A DNA stretch of 7,497 bases from JAGLHV01 sp023132075 [NCBI: bacterium]. Its GTDB lineage: Bacteria > CBDUZB01 > JAGLHV01. The notes under the pieces were generated by a model. The model was not told the origin of the DNA. It ran no database searches and worked only from the letters and a program-made list of their open reading frames with translations. Shown one piece after another: positions 157-7,497 of the stretch. Every line of letters begins with the position of its first letter. The stretch's first letter is position 1. Location of the stretch: positions 1 through 7,497 of the forward strand of contig JAGLYT010000074.1 of assembly GCA_023132075.1 (NCBI GenBank), given 5' to 3'. Made by a program: the position numbers and the translations under genes.

Positions 157-534
157 ATGAAGATGGCTAAACGCATATTAGTGATAGAAGATGAGCCGGA
201 TGTTTTAAAAATGACTGTTTTCAGGTTAAAGAAAACGGGGCATGAGATTTTAGTAGCTGTAGATGGCGCAGAAGGTTTGGAAATGGCAGAGAAAGAAAAA
301 CCGGATTTAATCTTTCTTGATTTAAATTTACCGGTATTAGATGGAGGTGAGGTTTGCCGCAGGATTAAAGCTAATGAGTCGTTAAAAAAGATACATGTGA
401 TTATATTGAGTGCAAGTTCGGATGGGATGAAGCAGAAAGCAAAAGAGATCGGAGCTGATGATTATATAATAAAACCTTATGAAGTTAGTGATTTGATAGA
501 AAAGGTGGAAAAAAATTTGGGGAAGGCTGAATAA
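157..534 (+). CDS. Stand-alone receiver-domain response regulator (CheY-like)
   Basis: This 125-aa protein is one complete phosphoacceptor receiver domain and nothing else, so it probably signals by protein-protein contact rather than by binding DNA. The expected residues are all visible. The acidic metal-binding pair is E11-D12 in LVIEDEP. The phosphorylated aspartate is D55 in FLDLNLP. The switch serine is S85 in IILSAS. The aromatic switch is Y103, and the conserved lysine is K106 in IIKPY. An output domain is absent; the C-terminus stops after the last helix. ATG 157 is preferred because AAGGAG ends 6 nt upstream; ATG 163 would also fit but sits further from that site. No histidine kinase or other partner is in the window. 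The prepilin-like gene downstream is separated by more than 200 nt, so a link to pilus control is only possible, not shown. Family assignment is secure; the pathway is unknown. Confidence 0.95.
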   Translation: MKMAKRILVIEDEPDVLKMTVFRLKKTGHEILVAVDGAEGLEMAEKEKPDLIFLDLNLPVLDGGEVCRRIKANESLKKIHVIILSASSDGMKQKAKEIGADDYIIKPYEVSDLIEKVEKNLGKAE

Positions 535-1703: not shown

Positions 1704-2148
1704 GAGTGCCCTACATCTAAGGAAACAAGTGCTGTTTTTATTAATTTAATCCGGAATTATTATGATGAAAAGGAAAGTATCCCGGAAGTTAGGGTGAGGA
1801 TGAATATACGGATATGAGATTAAATCCTGTTGTTCGGTTTAATTATAACATATAAACCTTATAGAAAAGTTCTTAGACTAAGGATGAATGAAGATGTTTT
1901 ATCTGCAGGATTTATTAAGTGAAAAGAAGTAATTTTCCGCTAAACTTATTAAGTAAAAAATCGAATTAGTTTTTCTGCAGCAAAAATTAAATATTAATAT
2001 TGAAATTTTTTTTGGAATCTGGTAGGATAAAAATCGTGATTGTAATGGTTTATGTGCGGACTTTAAAAAAAGGAATGTTTTTGTTTTTATAGACATATAA
2101 ATTGGTTTTTATATTTTTAAAAAGTTATTTAAAAAAGGAAGGGAAACT
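1704..2148. other. 445-nt A+T-rich spacer without a convincing gene
   Basis: I find no credible coding region, tRNA or recognisable riboswitch here. Only very short open frames with poor composition occur on either strand. The 9-mer TTATTAAGT appears twice, at 1912-1920 and 1946-1954. CTGCAG occurs twice near them. A weak promoter-like pair, TTGTTC at 1830-1835 and TATAAA at 1851-1856, has a 15-nt spacer, which is shorter than usual. The gap ends in A/T tracts just before the ribosome site of the gene at 2149. Because a four-gene same-strand cluster begins right after it, this is the most likely place for that cluster's promoter and any control element. Confidence 0.5.
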
Positions 2149-2775
2149 ATGGATACTAAGGATAAAAAGGTTAATAAAAAAATTGAAAATTTTAAAGATT
2201 TTCACCGGCTTATACCTGAATTTGTAAAAGAGATTAATAAAAATAAACAATTAGCTATTCGTGCGGCAGTTAATCCTTTACTGGCTTTTGAGGAATTGGG
2301 ATATAATTTACCGCCTGAAGTTCAAAAAAAAGTGGGAAGATTTATTCGTTTTCGTCCTAAAGATCGCAAGCGTTTGGCAGAATTAGAGACGGAGATTTAT
2401 AAAACAGCAGGATGCACTTTTGATCTTGATTCTCCTCAGGAAGTGGAAACGGTTTTATTTAAAACTTTAAAGATGCGCAAACCTAAGGGGATGGAAGAAA
2501 TGGTTAATTTAAATGTAATTCAAAAAGGGATGGCAATAGCAAAGAAGAAGAAAAAGAAAAAAGTAGAAAAAGTGGATCCTTTGGAAGGATTAAAAGAAAA
2601 ACATGCTGTCATTGCTCCCTTATTGTCTTATCGTAAAATCCAGGCAGGCAGCTCTGGTTTTGCTCCCCGGTCTCTTTATGAAGAACTCAAGGCAGGGAAA
2701 AAGAAATTTCCTATAAGTAAAATGAGCGTACGTTTTCCCGAACAGCACAAGCATGAGGAGGTAGAAGATGCCTAA
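2149..2775 (+). CDS. Stand-alone protein resembling the DNA polymerase I thumb region
   Basis: This is a 208-aa basic protein. Residues 79-95, LETEIYKTAGCTFDLDS, match the Taq DNA polymerase I stretch LEAEVFRLAGHPFNLNS (from memory) at 8 of 17 positions. The continuation SPQEVETVLFKTL resembles the family pattern S-x-x-Q-L-x-x-V-L-F. Residues 145-164, LEGLKEKHAVIAPLLSYRKI, match Taq LEALREAHPIVEKILQYREL at 8 of 20, in the same order. A looser match ends at F196. Between the two blocks lie 49 residues against about 32 in Taq, including seven lysines (132-138). The thumb/palm DNA-contact segment TKLKST is not conserved, and the chain ends before palm motif A, so no polymerase activity is possible. 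Residues 42-62 (NPLLAFEELGYNLPPEV) may extend the match. AAGGAAGG at 2135-2142 is the ribosome site. Its 3' end overlaps the next gene by 8 nt. Role unknown: a DNA-binding or scaffold relic is inference, and coincidental helical similarity remains possible. Confidence 0.8.
   Translation: MDTKDKKVNKKIENFKDFHRLIPEFVKEINKNKQLAIRAAVNPLLAFEELGYNLPPEVQKKVGRFIRFRPKDRKRLAELETEIYKTAGCTFDLDSPQEVETVLFKTLKMRKPKGMEEMVNLNVIQKGMAIAKKKKKKKVEKVDPLEGLKEKHAVIAPLLSYRKIQAGSSGFAPRSLYEELKAGKKKFPISKMSVRFPEQHKHEEVEDA
2756..2761 (+). promoter_or_regulatory. Ribosome binding site inside the upstream gene
   Basis: AGGAGG lies 6 nt before ATG 2768, within the last codons of the thumb-like gene. The stop TAA of that gene (2773-2775) falls after the new start. 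This 8-nt overlap with a strong site points to translational coupling of the two products. Confidence 0.8.
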
Positions 2776-5700
2776 TACCCGTGGTTTTGAAGTAGTAGCA
2801 GAGGTCATAGTATTAGTTTTAAATGAAATTCTTAAAGCAGCCTGGGATAACGGAGGAACCGGTGAGGCGGGGTCTATTCCCCATGAAGTTGTTATAGAGG
2901 AAGGGTTAATGTTTGGAACTTACCAGGTAACCAGTGGTCAGGTTAGTATTCCCCAGGAGGGTCTTAGTCTGGATATGGCACCGGCTGATAATGGAGTAAC
3001 CGTAAGATTAGCAACAGGGATTCAGGTAGATCTGGACCAAGAAACTATACCGGTAGATTCTTTATCTCAATTTAATATGACCGCGGATATTGATATAACC
3101 GCTCCTTTTGGAATTATTCCGGAAACAGAATTTAATGTTGGGGTTATTTTTGAGGGGTTGCCCCGGGATAAGGTAGTTGTTGCCCTTACCAGCGGAGATC
3201 CTATTGAACCGATTTCAGATACCCTTATTGCCGAGTATATACATAACCTTTATGAACAGAACGGAGATACTTTTCCGCATACTATTACCCTTGAGGATCA
3301 GAGCTGGAATGCTTTTACTTTCGATGCCTTTATTGAACTTTTTGATGATCTTTCTGATCCGGCACGGCAGATTACTGTACAGCGTCCCGACCCAAATCAT
3401 GTTGCCATATCCATACCTGTTCATTTAAGGTTAAGTGATGTAAATTGTTCTTATACTACTGTTCTTTCCCCTATGGGAGTAACCGCCAGAATAATTATTA
3501 CTGCTCCTTATGAGCAGACTTCAGGAAGAATTACCGCTACTTTAAGTGCAGCAGTGGTTACAGTAGAGGATTTAGCTCCTGCTTCAGGAACTGAAGGAAC
3601 TAATTATAATTTAAATAAAATAGGAGCAGCCGCTTTAGGAATAGACCTTGATGTTTTATTTATAACTCAGATTACTCTTCAGGGAACAGCGCTGGTTCAG
3701 GGGATGGGAGATGATGACGGAGAAATAAAAATTGACTATCCTACAGTAACCCAAATAGAACAATTTATCGGTGACCAGGTGCATCAGGAATTGCTCAATC
3801 GTCGTTACATGGGGGCCTGGACACCGGAAACCCCGGAAGATTCCCCGGTAGAAATCAGAGAGGTTCGTCCCAAGGCTTTAGCCGATGCTTTGGCTATAGG
3901 GATTAATCCGGGAACGGGTGCTGATGAGAATCTTTTGATTAATTTCGTTCCCTCTGACCAGTCCTTTGCTATTGCCCTGGATGCGGATTTTGTCAACCAG
4001 ACAATTGACGAGATTATTGCTGCTCCTGAACCCGATGGTTTCGGAGGGGTTCCCCAGGATTTCAATAATATAGAAGGACATGATGCAAGATTGAAATCGC
4101 TTGATCATGAATTAAAATCTGATGTTATTCATTTCTGGGGGGATGTAACGGTTTATGATGTTTTTTGCAAAGCCGATGCAGATTGCAGTTTTTGGGCAGA
4201 CATAAAGCTTAGATGGAATCCTCCGGACAGCTCCGGCGGTCAAAATCTGGAACCATACCTTCATGATGATGATGTAGATTTGCCCTGGTGGGCATGGCTT
4301 ATTGCCGTATTGGGTTTTATTTTTGGTCTGATTGTCGGAATTATTATGGTAGTAGTTACTGTGGTAGTTGAACGTGTTGCTGAACGTGTTGGTGGAGCAG
4401 TGATGGAAGATGAGGTGGCCGATGAATTACAGGTATTAGGAGCATGGCCTCAGGAATTACAGGGAATTGGGACAGTTATCTCTACCTTTCAGGAAGCAGT
4501 AGGTATTGATTCTAACGGCCTTTTATTTTCAGGTTCAATAATGATAGTTACTCCTTACAGTCTTACTTTAACCGATTCGGCTTGTGCCGGTGGCCCTTAT
4601 TCGTGTTTTGCAGGGGGGCTTCCTGTTGATTTTTTTGCCGGTCCCGGCAATCCAAAAATCGATTATCACTGGAATTTTGGAGCAGGAATTACTTCTCTGG
4701 GACACCTTGCGAGCCGTAAATACGACGATAATGGTTTATATCGTGTTCGTTTAACCTCTACGGTTAACGAACCCGGGGGGGCAATTACTCATAATTCTGT
4801 TTTGGTTCGTGCGGAAAATGTACCGCCGTTAGTCGATGCCGGAGAGGATAAAGTGGTCAATGAAGGGGAAGAGATTTTATTCTCCGGTAAGTTTACCGAT
4901 CAGGAATGGCCGGATACTCATGAAGCTATCTGGGATTTTGGAGATGATTCACTTCCTGTAGAGGGAGTGATTACCGAAACCAATAATCCGCCTCAGGCAG
5001 AGGGTGTTGTTACCGGCAGTCATGCCTATTGTGACCAGGGAGAATATACCGTAACCTTACGCATGCGCGATAATAACGGTGGGGTTAGAGAAGATACGCT
5101 TAAGGTTACTGTGCTTAACGTAGCACCGACAGTAGATGCCGGAGAGGATATGTTTGCTTATGCTTGTACGCCGATTACTCTGGTAGGGCGTTTTACCGAT
5201 CCGGGATGGTGTGACCAGCACATTGGTCACTGGAGTTTCGGTGATTGTACGCCTCCTCATCCGGCTGTTATCCGGGAGAAAAATGAACCGCCTATGGGTA
5301 CGGGCATTGTGGTTGCTACCCATACCTATAATCGTTGTGGGACCTATTGGGTAGAGTGTGTGGTTATTGATGACGATGGAGGAGTTGGTAGAGATGTTAT
5401 TACCGTGCGGGTAGTGGATGTTTTAAACCGTGATTTTGAGTCTGGTTTTCGTAACCTTAAGATGGGAACGGTAGCCAATCATTGGGAACCTTATCCGGAT
5501 AGTACATCTACACATACATTGGGAATGGTAGAAGCTGTGGATGTTAGTACAGCATTTTTTAATGCTGAAGAATTTGTTGTTCACGGTGGACAGCGTTCTC
5601 AAAAAATAGAAGGGGTGGGTAAATTTAGTGCCGGTATTTATCAACGGGTAGGAGCTAATCTTAATTGGGATTATCAGGTATCGGTCTGGTATCATATAGA

Positions 5701-6511
5701 TGAAAGAACAGGGGGTAAGTGCCGTTTGGGAATAGATCCTTTAGGGGGTACTGATCCTGCCTCAGCTGATGTAGAATGGGTTGAAAGAAATCAACGGCAT
5801 AATTGGGCACAATTAGTCTGGCGGGTGACAGCGAAAAAGCGGGCTATTACTATTTTTCTTGAAGTAGTCGGTGAAACACAAAACACGGCTGCTTATTTTG
5901 ACGATGTTGTTTTAAGTCCTTATCCCTGTCCGTTAAAAGAACCGGAAACAATAGAACAGCCTGAGCCGGAATTACGGGAGATATGTGTTGATTGGGCAGA
6001 GGAGAAAAAAGGCGGAGAAGTGGGTACTGTTTATGAAAAAAACGGTTTTGTTTTTAAGTCCGCGAATCAGGAAAAGTTACGCATTATAATCTGGGGTTCG
6101 CCGGAAGGTCAGGGTAAATTGGCTATTCCTCGGGAGGGAATGCAGGTTTTGTTGCCCTTTGTAGCTGATGCCGTTTTTGCCCATGTTGGACTTTATACCC
6201 AGCGTGCTATTGTCTTAAAGGCTCTGGATGCAGAAGGTAATACCGTAGGAGAGGTGGCTACGCCTGCTGCTCAGGGGGAAGCTTATACTCTGGAAGTAAA
6301 TACGGTAGGAACTGCATCTCTTTTCTTTTCCGGAGGAGGCGGTGAAGGTTTGTTGCTCAATCTGTGTATTTCCGAGGAAGCAGGAGGAGAAAAGCGTCCG
6401 CTCAAAAAAGCTGAAGATGTTAAGAAAGAATTGAGCCGGGTGGAAGGGAAAATAGATGCTAAACTAAAACGAAAAAAAATGAAGATTAAGAAGAAAAGTA
6501 AAAGAAAATAG
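2768..6511 (+). CDS. Large PKD/jelly-roll membrane-anchored protein, 1247 aa
   Basis: I do not recognise this protein as a whole. No N-terminal signal peptide is visible: residues 7-27 look like an amphipathic helix. Residues 1-480 alternate beta strands with helices. The segment near 7-30 (GFEVV ... VLNEILKAAWDNG) recurs in looser form near 399-420 (SFAIA ... FVNQTIDEIIAA), suggesting two TULIP/BPI-like halves; that call is weak. Residues 507-534 (WWAWLIAVLGFIFGL onward) form a clear membrane helix. Three PKD-like domains follow at about 596-684, 686-785 and 786-885, with core motifs YHWNFGAG, IWDFGDDS and HWSFGDCT. Residues 886-1052 look like a carbohydrate-binding jelly roll (NRDFESGF at the start, YFDDVVLSP at the end). 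Residues 1070-1202 are a beta domain opening with CVDW and closing with LLLNLCIS, shared with the next gene. The tail 1217-1247 is lysine-rich. The likely role is a surface or particle adhesin. It is coupled to the thumb-like gene by overlap and lies 39 nt from the next gene. Confidence 0.88.
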   Translation: MPNTRGFEVVAEVIVLVLNEILKAAWDNGGTGEAGSIPHEVVIEEGLMFGTYQVTSGQVSIPQEGLSLDMAPADNGVTVRLATGIQVDLDQETIPVDSLSQFNMTADIDITAPFGIIPETEFNVGVIFEGLPRDKVVVALTSGDPIEPISDTLIAEYIHNLYEQNGDTFPHTITLEDQSWNAFTFDAFIELFDDLSDPARQITVQRPDPNHVAISIPVHLRLSDVNCSYTTVLSPMGVTARIIITAPYEQTSGRITATLSAAVVTVEDLAPASGTEGTNYNLNKIGAAALGIDLDVLFITQITLQGTALVQGMGDDDGEIKIDYPTVTQIEQFIGDQVHQELLNRRYMGAWTPETPEDSPVEIREVRPKALADALAIGINPGTGADENLLINFVPSDQSFAIALDADFVNQTIDEIIAAPEPDGFGGVPQDFNNIEGHDARLKSLDHELKSDVIHFWGDVTVYDVFCKADADCSFWADIKLRWNPPDSSGGQNLEPYLHDDDVDLPWWAWLIAVLGFIFGLIVGIIMVVVTVVVERVAERVGGAVMEDEVADELQVLGAWPQELQGIGTVISTFQEAVGIDSNGLLFSGSIMIVTPYSLTLTDSACAGGPYSCFAGGLPVDFFAGPGNPKIDYHWNFGAGITSLGHLASRKYDDNGLYRVRLTSTVNEPGGAITHNSVLVRAENVPPLVDAGEDKVVNEGEEILFSGKFTDQEWPDTHEAIWDFGDDSLPVEGVITETNNPPQAEGVVTGSHAYCDQGEYTVTLRMRDNNGGVREDTLKVTVLNVAPTVDAGEDMFAYACTPITLVGRFTDPGWCDQHIGHWSFGDCTPPHPAVIREKNEPPMGTGIVVATHTYNRCGTYWVECVVIDDDGGVGRDVITVRVVDVLNRDFESGFRNLKMGTVANHWEPYPDSTSTHTLGMVEAVDVSTAFFNAEEFVVHGGQRSQKIEGVGKFSAGIYQRVGANLNWDYQVSVWYHIDERTGGKCRLGIDPLGGTDPASADVEWVERNQRHNWAQLVWRVTAKKRAITIFLEVVGETQNTAAYFDDVVLSPYPCPLKEPETIEQPEPELREICVDWAEEKKGGEVGTVYEKNGFVFKSANQEKLRIIIWGSPEGQGKLAIPREGMQVLLPFVADAVFAHVGLYTQRAIVLKALDAEGNTVGEVATPAAQGEAYTLEVNTVGTASLFFSGGGGEGLLLNLCISEEAGGEKRPLKKAEDVKKELSRVEGKIDAKLKRKKMKIKKKSKRK
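4823..5422 (+). repeat. In-frame tandem duplication of a 100-residue PKD unit
   Basis: Residues 686-785 and 786-885 of the large protein are two copies of one 100-residue unit with an exact 300-nt period. Both open with PP/AP-x-VDAGED, carry FTD-x-x-W, WDFGDD or WSFGDC, a roughly 26-residue insert with NNPP or NEPP, and end in TVLNV or RVVDV. At DNA level GATGCCGGAGAGGATA is identical at 4835-4850 and 5135-5150. The rest has diverged strongly, so the duplication is old. The second copy gained cysteines: C800, C815, C827, C857 and C864, against only C755 in the first. Confidence 0.85.
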
Positions 6512-6531
6512 GTTTAAAGAAATAAAATTTA

Positions 6532-6661
6532 TTATTGAAAAGGAGAAATTATGCCTGAAGAAAGAATAGTTAAAATTACAGCCTGGCCCAAAGAACCGGC
6601 AAAACTGGAACATCGTTTTAATAGCGAAAAACCCTGTCCTGTTTCTATTTCTTTTGAAAAA
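6532..6661 (+). repeat. Direct repeat, first copy (second copy at 7368-7497)
   Basis: The 130 nt here match 7368-7497 with five mismatches: one in the leader and four in the coding part. The repeat includes the ribosome site AAAAGGAGAAATT and the first 37 codons of the gene. It continues past the window edge, so the full repeat length is unknown. The offset is 836 nt, about one gene plus spacer, which marks a recent tandem gene duplication or homogenisation between copies. Confidence 0.95.
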
Positions 6662-7288
6662 ACTCCGGCTAATGTAATCGTTCATTCTAATCCCAAAGAG
6701 CCGCTTCATGTAGATATGGCGATGAATGTTATAGCAAAGGAAACAATCCCGGTATGTATTAAAATGTGTGAACCAATTTGTGTAAAAAGCAAATATGCTA
6801 TTGCTATCGACATTTTCGACCGTCCGGTAGCCAATATTGGTTTGCAGGGGGAAACCAGAATATCTAATTGCCGTGAAGAGGATAATAATGTTAGGCCGGT
6901 TTGTGTTGATTTTAATAAGTTAAAAAAGGGAATGGAATTTACAGAAGCACTTACCTATCAGGAATTTAAGTTTACTCCGCTGGGAGACAAATTACGGACA
7001 GTAGATTTCGGAGAGCCTGCCGGCCGAATAAAATTAGCTTTTTCGGGGGAAGGTATCCGCATAGATCTTCCTCAGGAGGCAAATCAGGTAAAACTTACAG
7101 TCAATAATTATGCCGGTCAGACCCTTGATTTTTCTGTCTATACCGGAAGTACATTGGCTAACCAATTTTCTCAGGACATTGTAAATGAAGTAAAAGAAAT
7201 TTTTATTTCCCGCTCCGGAGTTACGGCGATAGAGATTAAAGGCGGGAATAATGAAGCGGCAGTAGTGGAGGTTTGTTTTTCTTCATAA
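6551..7288 (+). CDS. 245-aa protein with C-terminal CVDF beta domain
   Basis: I do not know a named family for this protein. It has no signal peptide and no membrane segment. Residues 1-115 are beta-rich with repeated Pro-Val strands (CPVSISF at 29-35, PLHVDMAM at 51-58, IPVCIKM at 66-72) and several cysteines. Residues 117-245 begin with VCVDFNKLKKGMEF and end with VEVCFSS. They match the last folded domain of the preceding large protein: C-V-D-W/F near the start, K-K-G, F-x-F, LR then G-x-P-x-G and K-L-A, EG before a leucine-proline (LP), and a closing cysteine strand. A disulfide between C118 and C242 is plausible if the domain leaves the cytoplasm. AAGGAG ends 5 nt before the start, and the upstream gene stops 39 nt away, so co-transcription is likely. 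A near-identical copy follows. The shared domain suggests that the two products assemble together or use the same attachment route; that is inference. Confidence 0.85.
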   Translation: MPEERIVKITAWPKEPAKLEHRFNSEKPCPVSISFEKTPANVIVHSNPKEPLHVDMAMNVIAKETIPVCIKMCEPICVKSKYAIAIDIFDRPVANIGLQGETRISNCREEDNNVRPVCVDFNKLKKGMEFTEALTYQEFKFTPLGDKLRTVDFGEPAGRIKLAFSGEGIRIDLPQEANQVKLTVNNYAGQTLDFSVYTGSTLANQFSQDIVNEVKEIFISRSGVTAIEIKGGNNEAAVVEVCFSS

Positions 7289-7386
7289 ACTCTGCAGGAT
7301 TATATTGAGCGGGATAAGAGATAAAAGATTGATTTTTTTGAAAAAATAAATTAAAATGAAACAGCTCTTATTAAAAAGGAGAAATT

Positions 7387-7497
7387 ATGCCTGAAGAAAG
7401 AATAGTTAAAATTACAGCCTGGCCTAAAGAAGCGGCAAAATTGGAACATCGTTTTAATAGTGAAAAACCCTGTCCTGTTTCTATTTCTTTTGAAAAA
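7387..7497 (+). CDS. Second tandem copy of the CVDF-domain gene, cut by the window end
   Basis: Only the first 37 codons are present. They differ from the gene at 6551 at four bases, in codons 13, 16, 19 and 25. Three changes are silent and one gives P16A. The ribosome site AAGGAG and its 5-nt spacing are copied too. The mostly silent differences point to a functional, selected copy rather than a dead fragment. Whether its C-terminal half carries the same CVDF domain cannot be seen here. The 98-nt spacer from 7289 holds an A/T inverted repeat (7332-7347, ATTTTTT/AAAAAAT) but no convincing terminator, so read-through from the upstream copy is likely. Confidence 0.9.
   Translation, partial: MPEERIVKITAWPKEAAKLEHRFNSEKPCPVSISFEK

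What the first reader, a model, noticed from the sequence alone, without database searches (positions are those of the whole stretch)
2149..2775. Polymerase-I thumb region as a stand-alone protein with no catalytic domain
Two blocks, residues 79-95 and 145-164, match the bacterial DNA polymerase I thumb in the right order (8/17 and 8/20 identities to Taq, recalled from memory). The chain ends before palm motif A. The linker is about 17 residues longer than in Taq and holds seven consecutive lysines; the TKLKST DNA-contact segment is not kept. A thumb fold recruited away from replication and placed beside a surface-type protein would be unusual. It could be a DNA-holding scaffold, a structural relic or an adaptor.
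Basis: partly seen in the sequence, partly recalled or inferred. Interest (0 to 1): 0.72.

Follow-up and report, generated by a model that had tools for sequence, protein, structure and literature searches.

The report
Polymerase thumb inserted in small protein
A small bacterial protein carries the 'thumb' piece of a DNA-copying enzyme in its middle, probably kept for its shape rather than for gripping DNA, in a gene cluster where no other DNA-copying gene was seen.

Summary
Residues 73-169 of the 208-aa protein match DNA polymerase I above Pfam's cut-off (36.5 vs 34.3 bits). A profile of it and its ortholog rings in 64 other genomes of 386, each time in a frame of 590-1373 aa. The genus has an ordinary polA too. 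'Stand-alone thumb' is not the best description: a 121-aa protein from another phylum (G125), encoded directly upstream of a homolog of the partner gene, matches residues 1-72 and 166-208 but not the middle, and the polymerase signal lies only in the middle. So this looks like a small frame protein with a Pol I thumb hairpin (about 68-171) inserted, unless G125 lost it. A model superposes the insert on the Bst thumb, but polymerase rows were supplied, so this is partly circular. Apolar core residues are mostly kept, invariant polar ones mostly not (p 0.08). The gene overlaps the start of a PKD-domain protein gene in a cluster with a polyprenyl synthetase. I read the thumb as a rigid spacer or interaction arm; that function is inferred, not shown.

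The parts
2137..2142 (+). ribosome-binding-like GGAAGG before the ATG
   Evidence: sequence
2149..2775 (+). 208-aa chimeric protein (frame + Pol I thumb insert)
2191..2349 (+). N-terminal frame module, residues 15-67 (VNPLLAFEELGY motif); helical in the models, weak resemblance to a RiPP leader bundle
   Evidence: residues 1-72 match the G125 protein, 0 of 5000 shuffles; no polA signal, -0.1 bits; VIA Z 3.5 to SonA on a low-confidence model
2350..2661 (+). Pol I thumb-derived insert, residues 68-171
   Evidence: 47.7 bits for residues 60-170 against a polA-only profile; model superposes on Bst 503-587 / Taq 456-546 (polymerase rows in the alignment)
2365..2484 (+). thumb block 1, residues 73-112 (LETEIYKTAGCTFDLDSP...VLFKTLK)
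2485..2577 (+). linker at the thumb tip, residues 113-143, with seven lysines at 2542-2562
   Evidence: pLDDT under 50 for 117-140; short tandem repeat 2541-2572
2578..2649 (+). thumb block 2, residues 144-167 (LEGLKEKHAVIAPLLSYRKI)
   Evidence: weak alone (3.7 bits)
2662..2736 (+). C-terminal frame motif, residues 172-196 (SLYEELKAGKKKFPISKMSVR)
   Evidence: residues 166-208 match the G125 C-terminus, 7 of 5000 shuffles; dN/dS 0.05 for 166-208 (5 syn, 1 nonsyn)
2768..6511 (+). partner: 1247-aa protein with PKD domains; its ATG overlaps the end of the thumb gene by 8 bases
   Evidence: a homolog of its N-terminal part follows the frame gene in G125
6551..7288 (+). 245-aa cluster protein, no Pfam or PHROGs match; its start is repeated at 7387-7497 (second copy cut by the contig end)

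Best explanation
The gene makes a three-part protein. Residues about 15-67 and 172-196 belong to a small frame protein; in both places where it was found it is encoded directly before a gene for the same kind of partner protein. Between them sits a DNA polymerase I thumb hairpin (68-171). The Pol I thumb is two antiparallel helices joined by a tip, so its two ends lie side by side (recalled structural knowledge) and it could be slotted into a loop without breaking the host fold. The insert kept most of its apolar core but lost most of its invariant polar residues, so it probably serves as a rigid arm or spacer with a lysine-rich tip rather than as a DNA clamp. I infer that the frame part docks on the PKD-domain partner or another cluster member (the cluster includes a polyprenyl synthetase) and that the arm adds reach or a second contact, perhaps with an anionic membrane or a polyprenyl diphosphate. 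Shown: thumb homology, two-part frame similarity, overlap with the partner gene, cluster. Inferred: insertion as the direction, docking, loss of DNA binding, the arm's role.
For: Thumb: Pfam above cut-off; 64 other genomes of 386 ring, all in frames of 590-1373 aa; polA signal confined to residues 60-170 (47.7 bits; N part -0.1, C part -2.3). Frame: the G125 121-aa protein matches the N part (score 61, 0 of 5000 shuffles), the C part (39, 7 of 5000) and the two joined (84, 0 of 5000, shuffle maximum 61), while the middle is no better than chance (34, 2826 of 5000); BLASTP gives 3e-5 for residues 34-67; it is the best of 806 frames in seven loci by summed N+C score, 100 against 72 for the next. 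Partner homology in G125: 78.6 bits, 3e-19. Model superposition. Of 21 polA columns invariant in six sequences, mapped by eye, 10 are kept: 8 of 12 apolar, glycine or aromatic and 2 of 9 polar (Fisher p 0.08). Purifying selection overall. G002's cluster lies on a 41-kb contig among what I read as housekeeping genes.
Against: Only one thumb-less frame relative was found. Its C-terminal match is short (BLASTP second piece E 0.16), one unrelated frame scores higher on the C part alone (45 vs 39), and the unsplit window protein against it is beaten by 21 of 5000 shuffles. The AlphaFold model that shows the thumb had 13 viral polymerase rows in its alignment; without them pLDDT is 46 and Foldseek finds nothing significant (3 of 20 rows are Pol I, the best at rank 1 with E 4.0). 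Even with them no Foldseek E is under 0.001, and the tool warns that Z under about 13 can be a common arrangement for helical bundles. The insert has 4 synonymous and 11 nonsynonymous changes, so relaxed constraint is possible. The polar-loss pattern misses 0.05. No binding has been tested.
Confidence: 0.6

Rival explanations
1. The whole of residues 5-166 is a truncated, diverging copy of polA (thumb plus the stretch before it), now a relic or a gene fragment with a new tail.
For: NCBIfam pola aligns 5-166 to 455-597 of 890; MAFFT also lines up NPLLA..EELGY with the polA segment before the thumb; the insert has dN/dS 0.68.
Against: The N part scores -0.1 bits against a polA-only profile, matched or beaten by 36 of 1000 shuffles, and 1.5 bits against a viral thumb profile, 89 of 1000; it matches a thumb-less protein with the same neighbour; dN/dS 0.28 overall; ribosome site and overlap with the next gene. 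Among the polAs compared the closest is G045's, not that of its own genus (21/43 vs 13/35, 10/29, 11/35), but the outgroup loci had been picked as best hits, which biases this.
Confidence: 0.15
2. A DNA-holding adaptor: the thumb still binds duplex DNA, with the lysine run replacing lost contacts.
For: Net charge +17, seven lysines at the tip; thumb ancestry.
Against: Invariant N and Q stand as D92 and E98, and invariant T, S, T, K, T are not kept (mapped by eye); the neighbours identified are PKD and polyprenyl synthetase genes, none of DNA metabolism by my reading.
Confidence: 0.15
3. Chance or convergent similarity of a helical, lysine-rich protein to the thumb.
For: Lysine-rich stretch; block 2 alone is weak (3.7 bits); no blind structural match.
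Against: Masking residues 131-143 leaves 41.4 bits; 500 shuffles peak at 10.8; all 64 significant hits outside the genus lie in polA-length frames.
Confidence: 0.03

Closest known systems
Bacterial DNA polymerase I, thumb subdomain (Pfam PF00476, N-terminal part)
   Same: Sequence blocks in order; residues I83, G88, F91, S95, L103, F104, L107, L145, L159, R162 kept; modelled fold
   Different: No palm or fingers, longer tip linker, invariant polar residues mostly lost, sits between the two parts of another protein
121-aa protein of G125 (L059:8969-9334), unnamed; no Pfam or NCBIfam match over a cut-off
   Same: N- and C-terminal parts; partner homolog directly downstream
   Different: No thumb; its partner is 466 aa with no Pfam PKD match
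NHLP/Os1348-type and borosin (SonA) RiPP leaders
   Same: N/D-P..A...G motif (recalled); weak hits only: NF038399 E 0.062 for the G125 protein, VIA Z 2.9-3.5 of residues 17-67 to SonA
   Different: 13.4 bits against a cut-off of 40; Foldseek E 7.1-9.2; [quoted passage not shown] no RiPP enzyme recognised by reading the ORFs of the window and L012

Membership tests
DNA polymerase family A (PF00476) | Profile score over the curated cut-off | tested here: met
   36.5 vs 34.3 bits
DNA polymerase family A (PF00476) | Palm and fingers with motifs A, B, C | tested here: not met
   Match ends at profile position 90 of 381; the chain ends at residue 208
DNA polymerase I equivalog (TIGR00593) | 600-bit cut-off | tested here: not met
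   38.7 bits
DNA polymerase family A (PF00476) | Invariant polar residues of the thumb | tested here: not met
   2 of 9 kept, invariants taken from six polAs and mapped by eye
DNA polymerase family A (PF00476) | Thumb fold | tested here: inconclusive
   Z 11.9, rmsd 1.4 over 74 residues, but polA rows were in the alignment and Z under about 13 can be chance for helical bundles; pLDDT 46 without those rows
Frame family of the G125 121-aa protein | N- and C-terminal parts next to the same kind of partner gene | tested here: met
Os1348/NHLP clan (NF038399) | 40-bit cut-off | tested here: not met
   13.4 bits for the G125 protein; not listed for the window protein
Borosin binding domain (SonA type) | Five-helix bundle leader | tested here: inconclusive
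   Z 3.5, 3.1 A, 46 residues, low-confidence model

The most novel reading that the evidence does not exclude
A Pol I thumb hairpin acted as a mobile structural module: it was captured, as an insert, by a leader-like docking protein of an isoprenoid-linked gene cluster and turned from a DNA clamp into a scaffold arm, which would be the first case known to me of a polymerase thumb working outside a polymerase.
Probability: 0.4. Interest if true: 0.75.

Novelty: new variant of a known kind. Interest (0 to 1): 0.55.

Why it matters
Polymerase thumbs are treated as parts that only make sense beside a palm. A thumb kept in a non-polymerase frame, with the core retained and most invariant polar residues gone, would show that the hairpin is a portable unit, and would give a natural test of which residues serve the fold and which serve DNA. 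It also flags an annotation trap: the protein passes Pfam's cut-off for DNA polymerase A without being a polymerase. For the cluster itself (frame protein, large PKD protein, polyprenyl synthetase and two unnamed proteins) my paper searches listed nothing on a named function.

Tried and rejected
Hunts that found no further copy of the chimera: viral contigs (the partner); phages and plasmids by tblastn (13 weak matches, all in records without annotation; 16 weak matches, 12 under genes annotated as polymerases, 4 with no gene listed); genome contigs (one locus, the G002 contig itself); 386 genomes with the two-row profile (only G000 and G002 outside polA-length frames); 198 genomes of G125's phylum with the partner profile (G125 and a distant partner homolog, G517, with no frame gene beside it by my reading); G045's phylum (2 genomes, hits only in frames of 894 and 1079 aa); G033's phylum (1 genome, no match, which the tool says shows nothing). 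N part against plasmids and phages, G125 protein against plasmids: no match. The C part alone was not searched. G001 lacks thumb gene and partner in its assembly, but its contig ends inside the cluster, so absence is not shown.

In one search, 14 of 386 genomes matched the partner; apart from the window's genome, G002 and G125, the other 11 matched only residues 575-680, the PKD end. The G107 hit looks like an unrelated surface protein. A lipid-tube (TULIP-like) fold for the partner was a hunch from memory; the PDB sequence search gave nothing below E 0.38, so it is not claimed. The 245-aa protein against G033's 127-aa protein: only E 0.019, not claimed. Ruegeria plasmids carry a 50% identical polyprenyl synthetase near a family 1 encapsulin gene, with no frame match there. 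Rfam at gathering cut-offs and tRNA: none in the window.

Papers: the searches on a thumb outside a polymerase listed 13, 0, 0 and 1 papers; by title and start of abstract none reports a Pol I thumb outside a polymerase. These were listings only. PMC8429565 and PMC2887384: passages seen.

Dropped rows: 3 of 17 polA loci (L010, L036, L040) failed my motif filter; L039 failed another. In one search, 65 viral thumb segments came from the 80 loci, 43 remained after thinning, and I used 13.

Full report
What is there. Window 2149-2775 encodes 208 residues. Pfam places residues 73-169 in DNA polymerase A at 36.5 bits, above the curated cut-off of 34.3; NCBIfam pola gives 4.1e-10, far below its own cut-off.

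Is it chance? No. A profile from 11 polA proteins of other genera scores it at 46.0 bits; masking residues 131-143 leaves 41.4; the best of 500 shuffles reaches 10.8. In the reverse direction a profile of the window protein and its ortholog hits 64 other genomes of 386 at E 0.001, each time in an open frame of 590-1373 residues. I looked at only part of these as polA: up to 14 loci. Block 2 alone is weak (3.7 bits). An ordinary polA is present: split at contig ends in the window's genome and whole in G001 and G002.

Who else has it. Of three genomes held from this phylum, two carry the gene. G002's copy is 92% identical and lies with the same cluster on a 41-kb contig among what I read as housekeeping genes. 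The response regulator and prepilin-like genes that precede it in the window do not align anywhere in the 19.9 kb of G002 held as L012, while 2161-6870 aligns at 91%, so the conserved unit begins with this gene.

What the rest of the protein is. Searching with the partner protein found one relative in another phylum over more than the PKD end, G125 (5.6e-14). Directly upstream of it is a 121-aa gene. Its two ends match residues 1-72 (0 of 5000 shuffles) and 166-208 (7 of 5000) of the window protein; the middle does not match (2826 of 5000). The uncut window protein against it is less clear (21 of 5000), as expected if a large insert separates the parts, and BLASTP finds the N part at 3e-5 but the C part only at 0.16. 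Among 806 frames in seven loci it is the best by summed end score. The polA profile scores residues 60-170 at 47.7 bits, the N part at -0.1, the C part at -2.3, and the G125 protein at -1.7. By eye, about nine residues in G125 stand where the window protein has about 105. The simplest reading is a thumb inserted into a small frame protein; loss in G125 is not excluded with one outgroup.

Structure. With its ortholog only, AlphaFold gives pLDDT 46, and Foldseek with that model finds nothing significant, though 3 of its 20 rows, including rank 1 at E 4.0, are Pol I. With 13 viral polymerase thumb rows added pLDDT is 67: 71-110 at 84-91, 141-170 at 69-88 by blocks of ten, tip linker below 50. The 50 Foldseek matches listed of 128 are Pol I entries (best E 1.5e-3, none under 0.001); VIA-align puts residues 68-170 on Bst 503-587 with Z 11.9, rmsd 1.4 over 74 residues. 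The rows supplied make this partly circular, and the tool warns that Z under about 13 can be a common arrangement for helical bundles; it shows that the sequence fits the fold, not that the fold was found blind. In the model without polymerase rows, residues 17-67 resemble the SonA leader bundle at Z 2.9-3.5, which is weak; the G125 protein has a weak Os1348/NHLP hit (E 0.062). [quoted passage not shown] I use this only as a lead for 'docking'.

How it may work. Of 21 columns invariant in six polAs across the thumb, mapped by eye, 8 of 12 apolar, glycine or aromatic residues are kept but only 2 of 9 polar ones (Fisher p 0.08). N stands as D92 and Q as E98. That is the pattern of a kept fold with lost DNA contacts; which of these residues touch DNA is recalled, not tested. 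Selection is purifying overall (dN/dS 0.28; 16 synonymous, 19 nonsynonymous changes), strongest in 166-208 (0.05; 5 and 1) and weak in 70-165 (0.68; 4 and 11). The end of the gene overlaps the start of the PKD gene by 8 bases, and in G125 the same pair is 3 bases apart, so the two products are probably made together. Further along the cluster come a 245-aa protein, a 248-aa protein that I call NEW3-like from memory (no Pfam match over cut-off) and a polyprenyl synthetase (3.7e-59); in the window's genome the last two lie on contig C16. Both have relatives in G033 (1e-11 and 53% identity). I infer a docking frame with a rigid arm in an isoprenoid-linked assembly.

Verdict. Observation confirmed; interpretation partly supported and refined to an insert in a frame protein. 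Function remains inferred.

Noticed in passing
window 6532-6661 and 7368-7497: The start of the 245-aa gene is repeated (96% over 130 bases); L012 (G002) shows a single, 115-aa version. Contig C16 begins about 60 bases further by G002 coordinates, so C362 and C16 are probably adjacent.
   Followed up: partly
window 157-534 and 768-1703: A response regulator and a prepilin-like protein (N_methyl just under its cut-off) with a C-terminal 3-keto-disaccharide-hydrolase match precede the cluster; in L012 the genes before the cluster are different ones.
   Followed up: no
L026 (G033:C213): A cluster in a distant phylum with a polyprenyl synthetase, several NEW3-like proteins and an IPP-isomerase-like gene (last two labels from my reading), related to the cluster next to the window.
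   Followed up: partly
L042 6115-11029 (Ruegeria plasmid NZ_CP031947.1): A 50% identical polyprenyl synthetase, the third gene after a family 1 encapsulin shell gene; similar in Ruegeria sp. THAF33, where one gene between is not listed.
   Followed up: no
window 2768-4567: The N-terminal 600 residues of the PKD protein form a rare family (3 of 386 genomes; 2 of 198; G125 in both) with a DVDLPWWA motif before a hydrophobic stretch and no PDB relative by sequence.
   Followed up: partly
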